Assembly: GCA_937928045.1 (NCBI GenBank)
Contig: CALFWO010000055.1
Coordinates: forward strand, 62,001 to 126,000
Source: an uncultured Saprospiraceae bacterium
GTDB taxonomy: Bacteria > Bacteroidota > Bacteroidia > Chitinophagales > Saprospiraceae
Length of the DNA: 64,000 nucleotides
Direction of reading: 5' to 3'
Both the position numbers and the translations under genes were made by a program. Below, in pieces: positions 2,171 to 53,107 of this stretch. Position 1 is the first letter of the stretch. The number at the start of each line of letters is the position of its first letter. The notes beneath the pieces were generated by a model. That model did no database searches, was not told the DNA's origin, and saw nothing but the letters and a program-made list of their open reading frames with translations.

Positions 2171-2659
2171 TTACTCCTCCAACAATTCAGAACCCAACTC
2201 TTGGAAAAGAATATCGACATTCTCACCAGTTTTGGCGCAAGTCAAAATATTCCATGGCATGCCAATAGTTTTTTTGATTTCATTAATTGCCTCTTGATTT
2301 ACCAAATCTAATTTATTACCAACAATCTTAAAATTGCTCCCGGGGACAAGTTGGCGCAAATAATCAATATCTCGCTTAATGTTCTTGTAAGTGCTTGGTC
2401 TAGACAAATCAAATACATAAATAATTCCGCTTGCACCAAGAAAATACGATTTAGGTACTTTGTCTTGCGATACTTCGCCGGCAACATCCCATAGCAACAT
2501 GGTCAACTGCCTACCATCAATTTCTATTGTTTTTTTATTAACCTTGACTCCAATTGTAGTTAGATATTTATCACTAAATCTACTAAAAATGAACTGATTG
2601 AAAAGGGATGTTTTACCAACCCCGAAACTCCCTGTAAGAATTACTTTTTTGCTAATCAT
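2171..2659 (-). CDS. Rab/Ras-like small GTPase
   Basis: The 162-residue stand-alone GTPase domain carries all five G motifs: P-loop GSFGVGKT (residues 10-17), G2 threonine in TTIGVKV (34-40), G3 WDVAGE (57-62), G4 NKLD (115-118) and G5 CAK (141-143). The length and the TIGVxVxxKxI/WDxAGE pattern are of the Rab/Ras type rather than of the translation or Era/Obg type. It lacks a C-terminal prenylation CaaX box, as expected in bacteria. The residue equivalent to Ras Gln61 is Glu62. It sits between a possible regulator (277 residues, 9 bases upstream) and a PAS-like protein (3 bases downstream), so it probably acts as a nucleotide switch in a signalling module. The process controlled is unknown. 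Confidence 0.85.
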   Translation of the reverse strand: MISKKVILTGSFGVGKTSLFNQFIFSRFSDKYLTTIGVKVNKKTIEIDGRQLTMLLWDVAGEVSQDKVPKSYFLGASGIIYVFDLSRPSTYKNIKRDIDYLRQLVPGSNFKIVGNKLDLVNQEAINEIKKTIGMPWNILTCAKTGENVDILFQELGSELLEE

Positions 2660-2668
2660 ATGGTCCTA

Positions 2669-3502
2669 TTACGGTTTGTTTTGACTAAAGAAATAATGAT
2701 CAAGCTGGTTCGAAATAAACTTGAAATCGTCTTCATTCCATTTAATCACTTTATTGTCTAGTATTTTAGTTGCAAATTCAAATATCAAATCTGTAATTTT
2801 TCCTTTTTCACTACCGGATATTGATCCATTCATCGCAACAACTATAAAGTATGATGGAAAATTGTGGATCATTAATTTATGGCGATTGTATTCAATTAAA
2901 TCCAATTCCTCTTCGCCACTAAGAAAAGCGTCTTCAACAAATGATTTGATTGCTGTTAACATACCAGCAATTACATCTTGATCGATAGTAGGATTTTTAG
3001 AAGCAGCACCGATCAATAAACCAGAATCTCTTTGCACTATAAAAACTTCTTCAATCTGAACTTCATCAATAGCATATAAAATTTCATCCGATTGATCTAT
3101 CCCAAATATTCTAGCTTTTAGAGACCCAATTAATCCTTTACTAGAAAAAGTTGACTTTATTTGAGAATCGATCCGTTCCTTTAACTCTTGAAATTGCAGC
3201 GTTATAAACTTACGAATCATTGTTCCCATTACCGGATATATAGCATTGATCAACATATCTTGCGAGCCAATAATTTTTTCCTCCACGATTTCATCAACGA
3301 TCTTCTTATAGGCAGTAGGAAAATTTCGTTTCAATTCATCAATCTGTTCCACGATGATCGGCTTTACTTTTTCCTCAAAAGCCATAGGATCTTCGATGAC
3401 TGTTTCTATTTCATCAATTCGATTCCTGTCCTCACGTAGCAACAGATTTCTAAGTTGCAGTAAAGCGGCGTTCTCATCTCTTTTATGTTCCTTTTGGATC
3501 AC
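2669..3502 (-). CDS. Protein resembling the N-terminal half of some OmpA-family proteins; probable GTPase partner
   Basis: The 277-residue product starts at GTG (3502-3500), 6 bases after the coiled-coil gene. Residues about 12-60 are helical and charged. Residues about 90-110 contain VMGTMIRKFI, close to a VMGPAIRKAI block I remember from the N-terminal region of certain proteobacterial and cyanobacterial OmpA-family proteins. Residues about 150-235 form a sensor-like alpha/beta part (VEEVFIVQRDSGLLI-type start, then VIAGMLTAIKSFVEDAF), similar in outline to roadblock/longin folds that regulate small GTPases. There is no OmpA C-terminal peptidoglycan-binding domain, no signal peptide and no membrane segment here. 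Context next to a Rab-like GTPase suggests a regulator or effector; the biochemical role is inferred, not shown. Confidence 0.55.
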   Translation of the reverse strand: MIQKEHKRDENAALLQLRNLLLREDRNRIDEIETVIEDPMAFEEKVKPIIVEQIDELKRNFPTAYKKIVDEIVEEKIIGSQDMLINAIYPVMGTMIRKFITLQFQELKERIDSQIKSTFSSKGLIGSLKARIFGIDQSDEILYAIDEVQIEEVFIVQRDSGLLIGAASKNPTIDQDVIAGMLTAIKSFVEDAFLSGEEELDLIEYNRHKLMIHNFPSYFIVVAMNGSISGSEKGKITDLIFEFATKILDNKVIKWNEDDFKFISNQLDHYFFSQNKP

Positions 3503-3508
3503 TTAAAT

Positions 3509-3868
3509 TTAGCTTTCCATTAGTTTCCTTCCAATCTCAGATAGCATTTTCCCCATTTTATGACGATCCTTTTGAGTGGCGTCAACTAACTTTTGCTCTA
3601 ATTGCTCAAAGCGTTTGTCCATACTCTTCTCCAACTTATCCATTCTTGCGCCTACAGCCTTGTCTATAGCAGACAATTCTCTGTCGGCTATTTGGCCTTG
3701 ATTTGCAATGAGTTCTTCAAGCTCTTGAGCTCTTGCTTCTAAATCTTGATTGATTTCAGTGTATTTAGTTTCCCATTCTGATATCTGTTGACCCATCAAA
3801 ATGTTTCGAATCATTCCTAATTCGCCTAGATCTACCCCGTTTGTTGAATTGTTTTTGTCATTTGCCAT
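3509..3868 (-). CDS. Short coiled-coil protein, first gene of the GTPase operon
   Basis: The 119-residue protein is hydrophilic and strongly helical from about residue 20 to the end, with heptad-like spacing of Leu/Ile/Met (ISEWETKYTEINQDLEARAQ, MDKLEKSMDKRFEQLEQKL). It closes with DRHKMGKMLSEIGRKLMES. No catalytic motif is visible. It begins at ATG 3868-3866, follows a TAnnTTTG-type element and leads an operon with gaps of 6, 9 and 3 bases. A scaffold or adaptor role for the module is plausible; I do not recognise a named family. Confidence 0.6.
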   Translation of the reverse strand: MANDKNNSTNGVDLGELGMIRNILMGQQISEWETKYTEINQDLEARAQELEELIANQGQIADRELSAIDKAVGARMDKLEKSMDKRFEQLEQKLVDATQKDRHKMGKMLSEIGRKLMES

Positions 3869-47738: not shown

Positions 47739-48044
47739 TTAATTCATGGAAAAATCCGGAGTCACTGGCTGCATGCTATTGTAAAAAGTAAGCATGTTGA
47801 TCTCGTATTTCATAAACTCCGTCAATGGCAGATCTAAAATAATTGTTTGAACTTCAATTTCAGATGTGGCATTGATGATACACCAAAGTCGAGAACTTTC
47901 AAGAGAAAGCGCATAGTTGAGCAAAACCCCATCTTTAAATAGCCTATTGACCATAGCTCTTTGATAAGGAATCAAATCCATGAAATCTTCGTCAAGGTTA
48001 GCTGGCAAAGTAAAGTCTACAAGAAATTGATATTCAGAACTCAT
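47739..48044 (-). CDS. Small muconolactone delta-isomerase-like protein
   Basis: The 101-residue cytoplasmic protein fits a single ferredoxin-like alpha/beta fold of the muconolactone-isomerase superfamily: YQFLVDFTLP (strand 1), DLIPYQRAMVNRLFKDGVLL (helix), NYALSLESSRLWCIINATSEIEVQTIILDLPL and KYEINMLTFYNSM. Bacteroidota often carry such small proteins outside aromatic degradation pathways, so the enzymatic name should not be taken as a function. Confidence 0.6.
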   Translation of the reverse strand: MSSEYQFLVDFTLPANLDEDFMDLIPYQRAMVNRLFKDGVLLNYALSLESSRLWCIINATSEIEVQTIILDLPLTEFMKYEINMLTFYNSMQPVTPDFSMN

Positions 48045-48264
48045 AATTTGAGGTGTTCATAAGGTTTACGAGAAAAACTATCGGGGGTTCGATTATAAGT
48101 GTACAATTACTCTGCCACCTTGCTTTTTTAGGCTGTGATCTGAGAAAATTAAACAGTCAATGGTACATCAACATTTCTCATTAAAGATCAAGATGGATTA
48201 CTATTTACTTGATTCACTATTCTTTATAAGTTATAACAAATATGTATCTGTCTTAAAATATAAA

Positions 48265-48289
48265 ACACCTGCCAATAAGTGGCAGGTGT
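48265..48289. other. Perfect 9-bp hairpin
   Basis: ACACCTGCC (48265-48273) pairs with GGCAGGTGT (48281-48289) around loop AATAAGT. Neither side has a long T-run; it may end a transcript weakly or bind a protein. Confidence 0.4.
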
Positions 48290-48360
48290 TCTAATGACAA
48301 GGGAAGCCTAAGCTTCTTTAATAAGATAGATGAAATTTCTTATCAAGTCAATTGAGTACA

Positions 48361-48393
48361 AAAAAAAAGGCACGCTCCAATGGAGCGTGCCTT
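48361..48393 (-). terminator. Intrinsic terminator of the repeat-protein gene
   Basis: On the minus strand AAGGCACGCTCCA / TGGAGCGTGCCTT is followed by a run of about ten T, 19 bases after the gene's stop. Confidence 0.85.
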
Positions 48394-48411: not shown

Positions 48412-49965
48412 CTAGTAGTTTACACCTAGAGCTCGAAGAGTTTCGAAGTCCAAGTTTCCAACTGGAAGACCATTGTCTTTTTGGAATTTAGTTAAAGCAG
48501 CTTTAGTTCTAGCTCCTAATACGTTGTCAGCTGGGCCAGCATCGTATCCTCTAGCTTTAAGCGCTTGTTGAATTTGACGAGTTGTGTAGCTAGTTACTTT
48601 GTCAGCACAAAGAACTTCTCTCCACTCTGTGAATCCACCTTTCTTTACTAAGTTACGCTTAGTAATTGTAGTGTATTCTGCAGGAATATCGATGTTTCTA
48701 GTTGCAGCAGGAGTTTTTAGCACACGCTTAGACTGAGTTCCGTATTGAGCAGGAATTTCTTCTACTTTGATACAGTCTCCGCTTCCACCAGCACTTGATC
48801 CAGCTCCAGAAGCACTTGATCCAGTAATAGTACCATTGTCATAAGACCATCCTTCTGGACATCCTTTTCTTACCTTTTCAGTGTAAGAGCTTGACAATTT
48901 AGGCTTTCTTGCTACAGAAACAGCAGCAGGAGAAACCATCTTCTGAATAGAACGAGTAGTGTACTCAGCAGGAATTTCAACAGATGTTGTAGTTGCTGGA
49001 GTCTTAACTACTTGACGAGAAATCGTCTTGTATTCAGCAGGAACTTCGATTTGACGAGTTGTTGCAGCTGTCTTCAACTTTCTCCAAGTACGAGTTTTGT
49101 ACTCAGCAGGGATATCAACTGTTTTTGTACAGTCGTCTCCGTTGTCAGTATAGCCAGCAGCACATCCTTGTCTTACACGCTTAGTTACAGTTCTGTATTG
49201 AGCAGGTACCTCAACAAGACACCATACTAAACAGTCGTTAGGATCTGCAGACAAACAGTTTCTGTCAGCTTTCTTCTTCACCCACTTCGTAGAAGCTGGA
49301 GAAGTTTCGATAGTTTCAGTTACCGTTTCGTAAGATGCAGGAACACGCTCGATTCGAGTAGAAGCGTCTTTAGCTAAAACTTGCTCCGTTACTGTTTCGT
49401 ATTCCGCAGGAATAGTTTCAGAACGGTAAGTAGCAGGCTTAACTTCAACTTGCTCAGTTACAGTTTCGTAAGTAGCAGGAACTACTTGCAATCTTGTAGA
49501 AGCTTCCTTCTTAAGAACTTGCTCAGTTACAGTTTCGTACTTTGCAGGAATAGTAGAGATTCGAACACAAGGTCCAGATCCAGTCTCATTCGCTACAGTA
49601 GCACCAGCAATAGTTGATCCCTGCCCACCGGCAGAGCCTTCTTCATAATATCCGCTAGGACATCCGCTTTCATAAGTTCGAGTTACAGTTTCATACTCAG
49701 CTGGCAACCTTTTGATTCGAGTAGAAGCATCTTTAGTAAGCACTTGCTCACTTACAGTCTCATATGTGGCTGCGATAGTTTCAACTCTCGTCGAAGCTGC
49801 CTTAGTCTGAATCTGTTCAGTTACGGTTTCGTACTCATCTGCGATGAGACACTTAGCATAACATTTTCCAGGTTCTGATCCGGCAGGTAGGTCCTCAGGC
49901 TGTGCGAAAGCCATAGTTCCGAACAACAAAAAGCTAGTTACAAAAATTAAGTTCAATCTTTTCAT
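48412..49965 (-). CDS. Secreted 23-residue-repeat protein with C-terminal peptidoglycan-binding domain
   Basis: The 517-residue protein has a signal peptide (LLFGTMAFAQ, mature start PEDLPAG). Residues about 41-445 consist of roughly 13 units with a 23-residue period and consensus PAxYxTVTxxV, followed by x-K-x-A-S/T-T-R and a V/I-rich end (examples PATYETVTEQVEVKPA, PAEYETVTEQVLAKDA). Three units carry Cys-rich or Gly/Ser-rich insertions, near residues 95, 235 and 370. Residues 457-517 are a peptidoglycan-binding type 1 domain (TTRQIQQALKARGYDAGPAD...GARTKAALTKFQKDNGLP). It probably attaches to the cell wall and projects a repetitive beta stalk. Similar proteins are, from memory, found in related Bacteroidota; no function is known to me. 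Confidence 0.8.
   Translation of the reverse strand: MKRLNLIFVTSFLLFGTMAFAQPEDLPAGSEPGKCYAKCLIADEYETVTEQIQTKAASTRVETIAATYETVSEQVLTKDASTRIKRLPAEYETVTRTYESGCPSGYYEEGSAGGQGSTIAGATVANETGSGPCVRISTIPAKYETVTEQVLKKEASTRLQVVPATYETVTEQVEVKPATYRSETIPAEYETVTEQVLAKDASTRIERVPASYETVTETIETSPASTKWVKKKADRNCLSADPNDCLVWCLVEVPAQYRTVTKRVRQGCAAGYTDNGDDCTKTVDIPAEYKTRTWRKLKTAATTRQIEVPAEYKTISRQVVKTPATTTSVEIPAEYTTRSIQKMVSPAAVSVARKPKLSSSYTEKVRKGCPEGWSYDNGTITGSSASGAGSSAGGSGDCIKVEEIPAQYGTQSKRVLKTPAATRNIDIPAEYTTITKRNLVKKGGFTEWREVLCADKVTSYTTRQIQQALKARGYDAGPADNVLGARTKAALTKFQKDNGLPVGNLDFETLRALGVNY
48630..49845 (-). repeat. Degenerate protein-coding tandem repeat, about 13 units of 69 bases
   Basis: The repeats are those of the 23-residue PAxYxTVTxxV unit. 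They are diverged at base level and interrupted by three insertions, so the array is older than a simple slippage repeat. It also creates long spurious open frames on the opposite strand. Confidence 0.75.
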
Positions 49966-50043: not shown

Positions 50044-51312
50044 TTATTTCTGATCTCTTTCTTTTGGTGTTTCTTTCGAGGTGTAAATGTACTTCTTATT
50101 TTTCGGATAACACAAATAATATTTGGTAATTATTTTTGCAGTTACACCGGTGTCTATCGTTTCACTCATTGGCAATACTTCACCTGATTTCAAAGCGATC
50201 TGAATCTCCGCTTTACTGGTACTATAGGCACTATTGGTCTCTTTTCCTGTTATAATAAGGTCATCTATTTCATTTTCAATGCTAGGGTATTGTAGTATGA
50301 GTCTGTTTTTCAATGATTTAAGTGTTGCAGCACTCGGTGGTTCACTGGATAATACCGATTTGAAGAGATTTCTTCGAACCAAGCTTCCAGCTAGAAAACT
50401 AAGTATAGCATCCGAACAGTTTTCCCATTCTTTAAGGCTATACCATATATCGGTATCATCTAGCTTTGCATATTCCGTTAGTAGTAAGTTATCCTCTCGG
50501 AAATCAGATACATCTAGTTTTTTATTCAAAAACCCTAAAATTCGCTCCGAACCACCTATCTGAACACCTTTAGCCACCAAAAATCTTGCTCGGTCAATTG
50601 TCCTAATAAGCATTTGTTCTGCAGCTAATACCGTTTTATGCAGGTATGCCTGCCAATACATTAATCTCCTAGCAATAAGGAATTTTTCAATAGAGTAGAT
50701 CCCTTTTTCTTCTACCACCAGTTGATTATCGATCACTGTTAGCATCTTAATTATGCGATGATAGCCAATTACACCTTCAGAAACACCAGTGAAGAAGCTA
50801 TCCCTGTTCAAGTAATCCATTCGATCCATATCCAATTGGCCGCTTACCAATTGATGAAGGAATTTTTTAGGGTATTCATTATTGAAGATCCGAATTGCAA
50901 GATTTAGGCGACCTTCAAATTCCTTATTTAATGCCTCCATAAATAAATGAGACAGCGATTCATGATGAACATTAACGATTTTATGTTCTAAGGCATGTGA
51001 AATTGGGCCATGTCCTATATCGTGTAGCAGTATGGCTATTTTGACACCTTCAGCCTCTTGCGGAAGAATAGATACTCCTTTGTTTGTAAGTACTTCGATC
51101 GCTTGCGTCATCAAGTGAAGTGCTCCTATTGCATGTGAGAACCTGGTATGTATAGCCCCAGGATACACAATGTCAGTAAGCCCTAATTGTCTGATTCTGC
51201 GTAACCTTTGAAAATAGGGATGTTCAATTAAATCATAGAGTATACCGTATGGTACCTCTACAAATCCATATACTGGGTCATTGAATATCTTTCTTTTTGT
51301 CTTTCCTTCCAT
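50044..51312 (-). CDS. HD-domain phosphohydrolase (SAMHD1/dGTPase-like)
   Basis: The 422-residue cytoplasmic protein begins FNDPVYGFVEVPYGILYDLIEHPYFQRLRRIRQLGLTDIVYPGAIHTRFSHAIGALHL, the typical lead into the HD site. His97-Asp98 are in AILLHDIGHGPISHALEH, and DMDRMDYLNRDSFFTGV supplies the late metal aspartate. It belongs to the HD superfamily of dNTP triphosphohydrolases; the substrate is unproven. It diverges from porX across 238 bases. Confidence 0.88.
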   Translation of the reverse strand: MEGKTKRKIFNDPVYGFVEVPYGILYDLIEHPYFQRLRRIRQLGLTDIVYPGAIHTRFSHAIGALHLMTQAIEVLTNKGVSILPQEAEGVKIAILLHDIGHGPISHALEHKIVNVHHESLSHLFMEALNKEFEGRLNLAIRIFNNEYPKKFLHQLVSGQLDMDRMDYLNRDSFFTGVSEGVIGYHRIIKMLTVIDNQLVVEEKGIYSIEKFLIARRLMYWQAYLHKTVLAAEQMLIRTIDRARFLVAKGVQIGGSERILGFLNKKLDVSDFREDNLLLTEYAKLDDTDIWYSLKEWENCSDAILSFLAGSLVRRNLFKSVLSSEPPSAATLKSLKNRLILQYPSIENEIDDLIITGKETNSAYSTSKAEIQIALKSGEVLPMSETIDTGVTAKIITKYYLCYPKNKKYIYTSKETPKERDQK

Positions 51313-51550: not shown

Positions 51551-53107
51551 ATGGATAAAATTAAAATATTGTGGGCAGATGATGAGATCGACATGTTGAA
51601 ACCGCAAATTATGTTTTTGGAGAAAAAAGGATATGAAGTCGTAGCAGTGAGCAATGGTCACGATGCGATTGATGAATGCGAATCCAACACTGACATTGAT
51701 GTAGTATTCCTCGACGAATCTATGCCTGGTATTACTGGACTAGAAACTTTGGCCAAAATCAAAACAGCAAGTCCATTGTTGCCTATTGTGATGATCACAA
51801 AAAATGAGGCAGAAAACGTAATGGAAGAGGCGATTGGTTCTCAAATCTCAGACTACCTTATCAAGCCAGTCAACCCCAATCAAATTTTGATGACTCTCAA
51901 AAAGATCATTGATAATAAAAGATTGGTTCGAGAAAAAACATCAACTGACTATCAACAAGAATTTAGGGAGATACTTATGAGTATCAATTCTGCACCCGAT
52001 TTAGATGGATGGGCGGATATCTATAAAAAAATTATTGGCTGGGAACTAAAACTCGATCAATCTACCTCTGGAGAAATGAGCGAGATTTTGACCATGCAAA
52101 AATCTGAAGCCAATGCCGAGTTTTCTAAATTCGTAGAACGAAATTATGAAGACTGGATTACAGAAAAGATTGAAGCTCCAATTATGTCGCAGAATTTGAT
52201 GCGAAAGAAGATTTTACCAGAAATCAATGATGATGTTCCAACAATCATGGTGTTACTTGATAACCTGAGATTTGATCAATGGAAAATTATTGAGCCTATT
52301 ATTTCAGAATTATTTAGAGTTGAAGAGGAAGATTATTTTTACAGCATTCTCCCAACTTCTACCCAATATTCAAGAAATGCTATTTTCGCTGGGATGTTGC
52401 CAGGCGAAATTGCAAAGACCTATCCTAAATGGTGGTTAAATGATTTTGAAAAAGGTGGAAAAAATATGCACGAAAAAGACTTACTAGGCGAACAGCTTAA
52501 ACGGACAGTTCGTCGTCCAGTTAAGTTTGATTATTTAAAAGTTACCAATGTAAGTTTAGGAAAACAATTATTGGACAACGCCTTGAATTTTTTGCACAAT
52601 GACCTAAGTGTCATCGTGTACAACTTTATCGACATGCTTTCTCATGCACGAACTGAAATGGAAGTGTTGAAGGAATTAGCCGGTGATGAAACGGCTTACC
52701 GATCATTGACTAAATCTTGGTTTGAACATTCTCCTTTATGGGGAGCCTTACAAAAATTGTCAGAGCGAGATATCAAGTTGATTATTACTACGGACCATGG
52801 TACCATTCGTGTAAATACGCCATCTAAGATTGTTGGAGATAGAGATACTACGACCAATTTAAGATATAAAATGGGACGTAATCTAAACTATCAAAAGAAA
52901 GACGTTTTAGCTTGTAAAGATCCGCTTAAAGTAGGTTTGCCTCGTCCTAATTTGTCCAGTTCTTTTGTATTTGCGAAGGAAGATAAGTTTTTCCTATATC
53001 CTAATAATTACAATCACTTTAATAATTACTATAAGAATACATTTCAACATGGTGGAATTTCTTTGGAAGAAATTGTTTGTCCAGTAATCAAGCTAAGAAC
53101 AAGATAA
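51551..53107 (+). CDS. porX: T9SS response regulator PorX (REC + PglZ)
   Basis: Orphan-type response regulator that controls expression of T9SS genes. The 518-residue protein has a receiver domain (about 1-120) with acidic pair Asp10-Asp11, phospho-acceptor Asp55 in VVFLDESMPG, Thr83 and Lys105 in LIKPVNP. A PglZ alkaline-phosphatase-like domain follows (about 230-518) with metal residues in VLLDNLRFDQW, NFIDMLSHAR, TTDHGTIRV and QHGGISLEEIVCPV. In characterised PorX this domain is a zinc phosphodiesterase of oligonucleotides. The length equals the known family length. No histidine kinase (PorY) is adjacent; a small inverted repeat CCAAG/CTTGG (51488-51505) lies upstream. Confidence 0.95.
   Translation: MDKIKILWADDEIDMLKPQIMFLEKKGYEVVAVSNGHDAIDECESNTDIDVVFLDESMPGITGLETLAKIKTASPLLPIVMITKNEAENVMEEAIGSQISDYLIKPVNPNQILMTLKKIIDNKRLVREKTSTDYQQEFREILMSINSAPDLDGWADIYKKIIGWELKLDQSTSGEMSEILTMQKSEANAEFSKFVERNYEDWITEKIEAPIMSQNLMRKKILPEINDDVPTIMVLLDNLRFDQWKIIEPIISELFRVEEEDYFYSILPTSTQYSRNAIFAGMLPGEIAKTYPKWWLNDFEKGGKNMHEKDLLGEQLKRTVRRPVKFDYLKVTNVSLGKQLLDNALNFLHNDLSVIVYNFIDMLSHARTEMEVLKELAGDETAYRSLTKSWFEHSPLWGALQKLSERDIKLIITTDHGTIRVNTPSKIVGDRDTTTNLRYKMGRNLNYQKKDVLACKDPLKVGLPRPNLSSSFVFAKEDKFFLYPNNYNHFNNYYKNTFQHGGISLEEIVCPVIKLRTR

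What the first reader, a model, noticed from the sequence alone, without database searches (positions are those of the whole stretch)
48412..49965. Cell-wall-binding protein built from 13 repeats of a 23-residue PAxYxTVT unit
A long regular beta-type repeat array joined to a peptidoglycan-binding domain would make an elongated periplasmic or surface stalk. The repeats have three Cys-rich insertions, which may be binding or cross-linking sites. I know no described function.
Basis: partly seen in the sequence, partly recalled or inferred. Interest (0 to 1): 0.55.

Follow-up and report, generated by a model that had tools for sequence, protein, structure and literature searches.

The report
Self-zipping giant beta-hairpin wall protein
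This bacterial cell-wall-binding protein carries two matching sets of repeats that evolve in equal numbers and appear to zip together into one very long hairpin, a way of building a long protein arm that I have not seen described.

Summary
The repeat protein is real (517 aa, signal-peptide-like start, PG_binding_1 at the C-terminus), but it is not one 13-unit array. It is two arrays, 7 acidic then 7 basic units, either side of a conserved Cys-rich head. Across relatives with 3 to 28 units per arm the arms keep equal unit numbers: 160 of 196 complete distinct ORFs equal, 185 within one; in loci not used for training, with a frozen profile, 36 of 42 equal. Residue covariation between the arms peaks on one antiparallel diagonal, drops about tenfold one unit out of register in the full set, and reappears when measured from the base. 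AlphaFold2 on the head-proximal fragment gives regular 12+7-residue strands (pLDDT 87.8, pTM 0.34); its PDB matches are weak, mostly pore-forming toxins. Best reading: a giant antiparallel beta-hairpin, both termini and the wall-binding domain at the base, Cys head at the tip, length set by the number of unit pairs. No Pfam or NCBIfam model reaches its cut-off over the repeats. The fold inference is strong; function (wall strut, strap or stalk) is inferred. The gene usually lies beside porX.

The parts
48412..49965 (-). gene for the 517-aa zipped-hairpin protein
49903..49965 (-). signal peptide, residues about 1-21
   Evidence: sequence reading (hydrophobic stretch then AFA|Q); no predictor was run
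49849..49863 (-). base motif CYAKC (C35, C39) at the start of the N arm
   Evidence: invariant Cys columns in A2, 12 sequences
49276..49845 (-). N arm: 7 units of 23 residues, net acidic (YETVTEQ type)
49552..49662 (-). Cys-bounded insertion in N unit 3 (5th from the head), C102-C133
49210..49284 (-). head / hairpin tip WVKKKADRNCLSADPNDCLVWCLVE, C237 C245 C249
   Evidence: conserved in A1, A2 and A3
48619..49209 (-). C arm: 7 units, net basic (YKTVTKR type); unit 5 divergent
   Evidence: searches find six; unit 5 added by eye
49129..49164 (-). short Cys loop C268-C279 in C unit 1
48772..48861 (-). Cys-bounded insertion in C unit 5 (5th from the head), C369-C398
48607..48627 (-). base motif EWREVLC (C453) at the end of the C arm
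48427..48579 (-). PG_binding_1 domain, residues 463-513
48367..48393 (.). terminator-like 12-pair stem just downstream of the gene, T-rich tail on both strands
   Evidence: 5 such sites in the region, 1.4 expected
50044..51312 (-). HD-domain protein, usual upstream neighbour on the same strand (context)
51551..53107 (+). porX, T9SS response regulator, usual divergent neighbour (context)
   Evidence: NCBIfam NF052313, 816.9 bits

Best explanation
The protein is a giant antiparallel beta-hairpin made of tandem repeats. The acidic N-terminal array and the basic C-terminal array zip together in register, unit k from the head with unit k. The chain turns round at the Cys-rich head (tip) and closes at a Cys-bearing base next to the peptidoglycan-binding domain. 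Within a unit pair, residue p of the N arm faces residue q of the C arm with p+q = 19, so the PA kink at positions 2-3 faces the PA kink at 16-17, long strand faces long strand and short faces short. Length evolves by gain or loss of paired units. SHOWN: two arrays, opposite mean charge, conserved near-equality of unit number, covariation along one antiparallel diagonal. INFERRED: pairing within one molecule (a dimer could give the same covariation), the shape of the whole rod, disulfides at base and tip, and the function: a wall-anchored strut or strap that holds a partner at a distance set by unit number. At about 0.33 nm per residue (recalled) 7 pairs would be about 50 nm and 28 pairs about 200 nm if straight. 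That is longer than a periplasm is deep (recalled), so it would have to lie along the wall, coil, or cross the outer membrane. OmpA-family domains inserted mid-arm in long relatives favour lying along the wall.
For: Equal arms: 160 of 196 complete distinct ORFs equal, 185 within one, r 0.976, shuffled pairing mean 21.1 and maximum 37 in 10,000 shuffles. Untrained loci with the frozen profile: 36 of 42 equal, r 0.997. Independent pairs on a head+base-domain tree: of 32 pairs whose N count differs, C changes by exactly the same number in 15 and within one in 28; r 0.90 over 59 pairs, slope 0.96. Covariation: 147 sequences, corrected mutual information peaks at antiparallel offset D=4 (43.6, against 4.6 and 2.2 at one-unit shifts); 16 of the top 20 inter-arm pairs lie within 3 of it, 1.4 expected. 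D=4 is also the top diagonal in both random halves, in arms of 6 or more units, in arms of 4-5 units, and when anchored at the base. Charge: mean -1.21 per N unit and +1.50 per C unit; N<0 and C>0 in 128 of 162 proteins. AF2 fragment with 69 sequences: pLDDT 87.8, strands of 12 and 7 residues; weak matches mostly to pore-forming toxins, whose hairpin stems are recalled. OmpA (PF00691) inserted in both arms of L178.
Against: 36 of 196 are unequal by the strict count. The covariation on D=4 sits in the short strand and kinks (positions 15-23 and 1-4); across the conserved long strand (5-14) it is weak or negative, for example (5,14) -34 and (9,10) -18, so pairing of the long strands follows from the register and is not itself shown. 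In subsets the one-unit-shift control is less clean: up to 11.2 against 43.9; with three units and arms of at most 5 the top diagonal is D=5, then 4. pTM is only 0.20 (whole) and 0.34 (fragment), so the global shape is unknown. I had no coordinates, so N-C contacts in the AF2 model were not read. AF2 uses the same covariation and is not independent of it. TM-scores of the PDB matches are at most 0.16. Insertion positions are not clearly mirrored: within one unit in 22 of 46, random mean 16.6 and maximum 27. Nothing here tests function or location.
Confidence: 0.86

Rival explanations
1. The arms pair between molecules: the N arm of one copy zips with the C arm of another, making a dimer or a polymer (fibre).
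For: Covariation and equal counts cannot tell intra- from intermolecular pairing. Three Cys at the head and three at the base leave one unpaired Cys at each end if one disulfide forms there, which could link molecules.
Against: The head is short (about 25 residues) and sits exactly where a tight turn would be. The register measured from the head and from the base is the same, which is simplest for a closed hairpin.
Confidence: 0.15
2. Each arm folds alone as a beta-solenoid or linear beta-array and the chain is one long single-file stalk.
For: Regular two-strand units; a within-arm covariation peak at lag 23, which could be stacking.
Against: Inter-arm antiparallel covariation in unit register and conserved equal counts have no reason in this model. 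Lag 23 is also expected from duplication of units.
Confidence: 0.04
3. Function: a wall-bound strap that lies along the peptidoglycan and stiffens or shapes the envelope, rather than a stalk that projects from it.
For: OmpA-family domains inserted mid-arm, confirmed by Pfam in both arms of L178; 18 of 164 members have insertions over 90 residues in both arms, of which several look OmpA-like by eye and a few are Gly/Ser-rich. A straight rod would be longer than the periplasm is deep (recalled numbers). L032 carries OmpA instead of PG_binding_1 at the base.
Against: The window protein has no mid-arm wall-binding domain; no localisation data.
Confidence: 0.35
4. Function tied to type IX secretion or gliding, through its usual place beside porX.
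For: PorX is found in 63 of 80 named loci, always on the opposite strand; the HD gene lies upstream on the same strand in 66 of the 72 loci counted; PorX identity.
Against: Synteny with core genes need not mean shared function. No T9SS sorting domain is among the 6 Pfam and 9 NCBIfam families listed. Ten of the 72 loci have over 3,500 nt upstream and no porX.
Confidence: 0.12
5. Equal unit numbers come from shared ancestry only, not from selection on pairing.
For: Many sequences are related, and 27 of 59 independent pairs have the same N number.
Against: Among pairs that differ, changes go together: for example 19/19 vs 8/8, 9/9 vs 18/18, 24/24 vs 16/16.
Confidence: 0.03

Closest known systems
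PG_binding_1 wall-binding proteins (PF01471)
   Same: C-terminal domain above the curated cut-off
   Different: That domain says nothing about the two paired arms or the head
OmpA-family (PF00691) peptidoglycan-associated proteins
   Same: Relatives carry OmpA at the base (L032) or within the arms (L178)
   Different: The window protein has no OmpA match; the arms are unrelated
Beta-hairpin stems of pore-forming toxins (lysenin, protective antigen, iota Ib)
   Same: Weak fold matches to the AF2 fragment; that these segments are two-stranded hairpin stems is recalled
   Different: Z 2.8 at most, TM-score at most 0.16, no sequence relation; there the hairpins join into barrels, here the strands are Glu/Lys/Thr-rich and built of tandem repeats
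SMC / Rad50 coiled-coil arms (recalled, analogy only)
   Same: N arm and C arm of equal length fold back on each other around a central hinge with the termini together at the base
   Different: Beta-strands, not coiled coil; no ATPase head; no homology claimed
HxsA (TIGR03979)
   Same: Matches residues 405-516, the last repeats and PG-binding end (43.3 bits)
   Different: Far below the curated cut-off of 121.65

Membership tests
PG_binding_1 (PF01471) | profile score above gathering cut-off | tested here: met
   52.1 bits vs 23, residues 463-513
PG_binding_1 (PF01471) | binding to peptidoglycan | not testable with these tools
   needs purified protein and sacculi
HxsA (TIGR03979) | equivalog score above cut-off | tested here: not met
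   43.3 vs 121.65
OmpA family (PF00691) | OmpA domain in the window protein | tested here: not met
   not among the six Pfam families listed at E up to 10; present in relatives L032 and L178
Pore-forming-toxin stem fold | matching fold over the hairpin | tested here: inconclusive
   3 of 998 chains at Z 2.2-2.8; best Foldseek E 1.2e-3, TM-scores at most 0.16
T9SS substrate | conserved C-terminal sorting domain | tested here: not met
   C-terminus is PG_binding_1; no T9SS sorting domain among the 6 Pfam and 9 NCBIfam families listed
SMC-like architecture | ATPase head formed by N and C termini, coiled-coil arms | tested here: not met
   no such family listed; arms predicted all-beta; analogy only

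The most novel reading that the evidence does not exclude
A new class of tandem-repeat protein: two charge-complementary arrays in one chain that zip in register like a molecular zipper, whose length evolves by paired unit gain or loss (3 to 28 pairs seen in Bacteroidota, and a 2/2 form on an alphaproteobacterial plasmid), giving wall-anchored rods of tens to perhaps 200 nm with a Cys-rich tip that span or strap the envelope and may set spacing or cell shape.
Probability: 0.5. Interest if true: 0.85.

Novelty: categorically new. Interest (0 to 1): 0.74.

Why it matters
Repeat proteins are normally solenoids, beads on a string, or fibres (recalled). Here repeat number is held nearly equal in two separate arrays across about a tenfold range, so length is a paired, evolvable setting. 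This gives a directly testable fold, a natural design rule for very long two-stranded beta rods, and a candidate ruler or strap of the Bacteroidota envelope whose length varies at a mostly fixed chromosomal place next to porX.

Tried and rejected
Single 13-unit array: rejected (two arrays, 7+7). Phage origin: no tblastn match in 'phages' at E<=1e-3; no stretch in viral contigs fits the one head pattern tried. Solved homologues: 14 distinct sequences at E<=1, all PG-binding or unrelated weak hits. Whole-protein AF2 with 12 sequences (11 relatives; L082 of the listed 7-unit members left out): pLDDT 65.1, pTM 0.20; its PDB matches carry no weight except at the PG-binding end. Mirror position of insertions: inconclusive. 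A rescue step for missed units changed little (162 vs 160 of 196 equal). Vibrio plasmid hit H11: a different protein sharing only the PG-binding domain. Ice-binding by TxT arrays: considered, not pursued. My recollection that gammaproteobacteria hold relatives could not be tested: one search failed, and one search found only the Methylobacterium record itself. Papers: nine searches showed no title or abstract start on this architecture; I saw only listings and starts of abstracts and opened no paper.

The window protein itself (as L001) counts as unequal (7/6) under the strict parser; I call it 7/7 by eye, as I do some close relatives with the same divergent unit. These by-eye changes are not in the counts given. 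One row counted as equal is 0/0 (no arms).

Full report
WHAT IS THERE. The ORF 48412-49965 (-) encodes 517 aa: a signal-peptide-like start, a CYAKC motif, 23-residue units, and PG_binding_1 at 463-513, 52.1 bits against a cut-off of 23. No Pfam or NCBIfam model reaches its cut-off over the repeats; a few sub-threshold matches are listed. The units fall into two groups: seven acidic (YETVTEQ type) before, and seven basic (YKTVTKR type) after, a conserved head WVKKKADRNCLSADPNDCLVWCLVE. The parser finds 7 and 6; I add the divergent fifth C unit by eye. Twelve Cys lie at the base (35, 39, 453), head (237, 245, 249), C1 loop (268, 279) and two insertions (102, 133; 369, 398) (positions).

RELATIVES. 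34 of 60 near genomes match the whole protein at E<=1e-6. With a head model (A1) 103 of 298 genomes of the order match, 12 of 395 in a class draw (5 of them of the own family, 7 outside the order) and 10 of 296 in a phylum draw (5 own family); the draws share genomes. In the collection of named genomes 285 stretches encode a relative and the best 80 were kept (L054-L133); all 80 titles name Saprospiraceae, Saprospirales or other Bacteroidota, among them Portibacter lacus, P. marinus and Aureispira isolates. ORF lengths run from about 220 to 2043 aa. Seven members outside the order (L166-L169, L171-L173) have equal arms, 4/4 to 12/12, in 7 of 7 (unit starts); L171 and L173 end in an OmpA-like domain by eye. 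A Methylobacterium bullatum plasmid ORF has two units, a short turn with one Cys, and two units.

EQUAL ARMS. A 23-column profile was trained on family members and used to count units before and after the head, blind to pairing. First count: 93 of 122 equal (dropped: 31 duplicates, 12 without the base motif, 11 cut, 8 low head score, 2 without the Cys pattern). For a second set I fetched 60 places that one search listed without a locus (more were listed), before counting them, and kept the profile frozen: 36 of 42 equal, r 0.997, shuffle mean 9.6, maximum 19 (20 hits dropped: 13 no base motif, 4 no Cys pattern, 1 low score, 1 duplicate, 1 cut). They are new loci but relatives of the training set. 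By eye the six exceptions look like parser errors. All together, without requiring the base motif: 160 of 196 equal, 185 within one, r 0.976; the equal ones run from 3 to 28 per arm apart from one 0/0 row; shuffled mean 21.1, maximum 37 (dropped: 34 duplicates, 11 cut, 10 low score). Exceptions that look genuine by eye: L013 21/20, L014 17/16, L059 11/10, L063 9/8, L064 8/9, L065 10/9, L070 19/17, L071 22/20, L077 14/16, L085 17/19, L098 8/12, one L106 copy 7/6, L107 24/16, L121 17/18, L127 7/8. L111 (16/4) and L116 (3/6) may be truncated or frame-broken; I did not check. On a tree of head plus base domain (118 sequences), 59 non-overlapping pairs were drawn; 32 differ in N; in 15 of these C differs by exactly the same number and in 28 within one; r 0.90, slope 0.96; null mean 1.4 and maximum 8 for exact agreement. 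Of the 27 pairs with the same N, 21 have the same C.

REGISTER. From 147 sequences (effective 106 at 80% identity) with four units on each side of the head, APC-corrected mutual information between arms was averaged along antiparallel diagonals (x1e-3). The peak is D=4 (43.6), falling on both sides; the same residue pairing one unit out of register gives 4.6 and 2.2; parallel diagonals reach 16.1; 60 shuffles of C arms among sequences reach at most -5.9. Of the top 20 inter-arm pairs 16 lie within 3 of D=4 (1.4 expected), of the top 100, 48 (7.2 expected); without the head-adjacent units 15 of 20 (1.9 expected). The signal is strongest in the short strand and kinks (positions 15-23 and 1-4, for example (22,20) 223) and weak or negative in the conserved long strand (5-14). 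D=4 is the top diagonal in two random halves, in arms of 6 or more units, in arms of 4-5 units, and with the register anchored at the base in 81 proteins; one-unit-shift values in these subsets reach 11.2; with three units and arms of at most 5 the top is D=5, then 4. D=4 means p+q=19 in a unit pair: PA(2,3) faces (16,17). Gene conversion between arms would give p=q, not this.

STRUCTURE. AF2 on the mature protein (12 sequences) is poor globally (pLDDT 65.1, pTM 0.20) but shows 12- and 7-residue strands in most units. The 215-residue fragment with four units on each side (A3, window plus 68 of the 69 relatives' fragments that passed the filter) has pLDDT 87.8 and pTM 0.34: confident local strands, uncertain global shape, as for a long thin object. 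Its PDB matches are weak: of 998 chains three reach Z 2, namely protective antigen channel residues 279-347 over model 7-202 (Z 2.8), a phage tail protein (2.5), iota Ib pore with long stem 298-401 over 1-214 (2.2). Foldseek finds none at E<=0.001; best is a phi29 collar/tail structure (1.2e-3), and most of the 50 rows shown are lysenin and other pore-forming or aerolysin-like proteins, TM-scores at most 0.16. That these toxin segments are hairpin stems is recalled. I had no coordinates.

CHARGE. Counting 1436 N and 1422 C units, the mean per-protein net charge is -1.21 and +1.50 per unit; C is above N in 150 of 162 proteins with at least 3 units per arm, with N negative and C positive in 128.

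ELABORATIONS. Long members carry extra domains inside the arms; in L178 (28/28) both are OmpA family (62.8 and 80.0 bits against 27.2). Of 164 rows, 46 have an insertion of 8 or more residues in both arms (the C1 loop left out) and 18 over 90 residues in both. Positions are 0 to 3 units further out in the C arm in 43 of 46, but within one unit in only 22 of 46 (random mean 16.6, maximum 27). I do not use insertion mirroring as evidence.

CONTEXT. The upstream gene is an HD-domain protein (PF01966, PF19276) and beyond it, divergent, is porX (NF052313, 816.9 bits against 300). Of the 72 named loci in this count (8 of the 80 were not in it) 66 have the HD gene upstream on the same strand; four of the other six have under 450 nt upstream. 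PorX is present in 63 of the 80 loci, on the opposite strand in all 63; ten of the 72 have over 3,500 nt upstream and no PorX. A terminator-like stem of 12 pairs follows the gene (48367-48393), so it probably ends its transcription unit.

MECHANISM. Shown: two arrays, near-equal numbers, antiparallel register. Inferred, about 0.85: an intramolecular hairpin with head at the tip and both termini plus the wall domain at the base. Inferred, about 0.5: a wall-anchored spacer. If straight, 7 pairs make about 50 nm (0.33 nm per residue, recalled), too long to stand upright in a periplasm, so either it lies along the wall (favoured by mid-arm OmpA domains), or it is coiled by the PA kinks, or it crosses the outer membrane. 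The three Cys at each end are candidates for one closing disulfide plus one intermolecular bond.

NOVELTY. I found no described protein with two in-chain repeat arrays held to equal number and zipped in register (nine searches of the paper library, listings only; Pfam, NCBIfam and PDB searches as above). Long beta-hairpins and two-arm coiled coils are known separately (recalled), so 'categorically new' refers to the repeat architecture, not to the beta-ladder as such or to wall binding.

Noticed in passing
L038 (G024:C542), ORF of 2043 aa: A macroglobulin/plug-like envelope protein (named by eye) with an inserted repeat module: three basic units, six acidic units, the head, three basic units. 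Basic and acidic units still balance 6/6 although the basic ones are split (counted by eye; the parser gives 9/3).
   Followed up: partly
L002:1003-1815: Head-only paralogue in the window's own genome (270 aa): keeps WVKKKVDNNCVSADPDDCLVWCLVE and a Cys loop without arms. L051 and L175 are similar short forms.
   Followed up: partly
L164:2935-3573: Methylobacterium bullatum plasmid ORF with a 2/2 mini-hairpin and no Pfam match at E<=0.1.
   Followed up: partly
window 47739-48044: Small protein with a muconolactone isomerase-like match (PF02426, 31.9 bits, cut-off 26.7) downstream of the hairpin gene.
   Followed up: no
window 2171-3868: Run of small genes including a Ras-like small GTPase (recognised by eye).
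   Followed up: no
L095, L106, L093: Two copies of the hairpin gene on one locus; the L106 copies are 7/7 and 7/6, a possible recent unpaired loss of one C unit.
   Followed up: partly
window 48261-48293: A second terminator-like stem, 14 pairs, on the minus strand below the first one.
   Followed up: no
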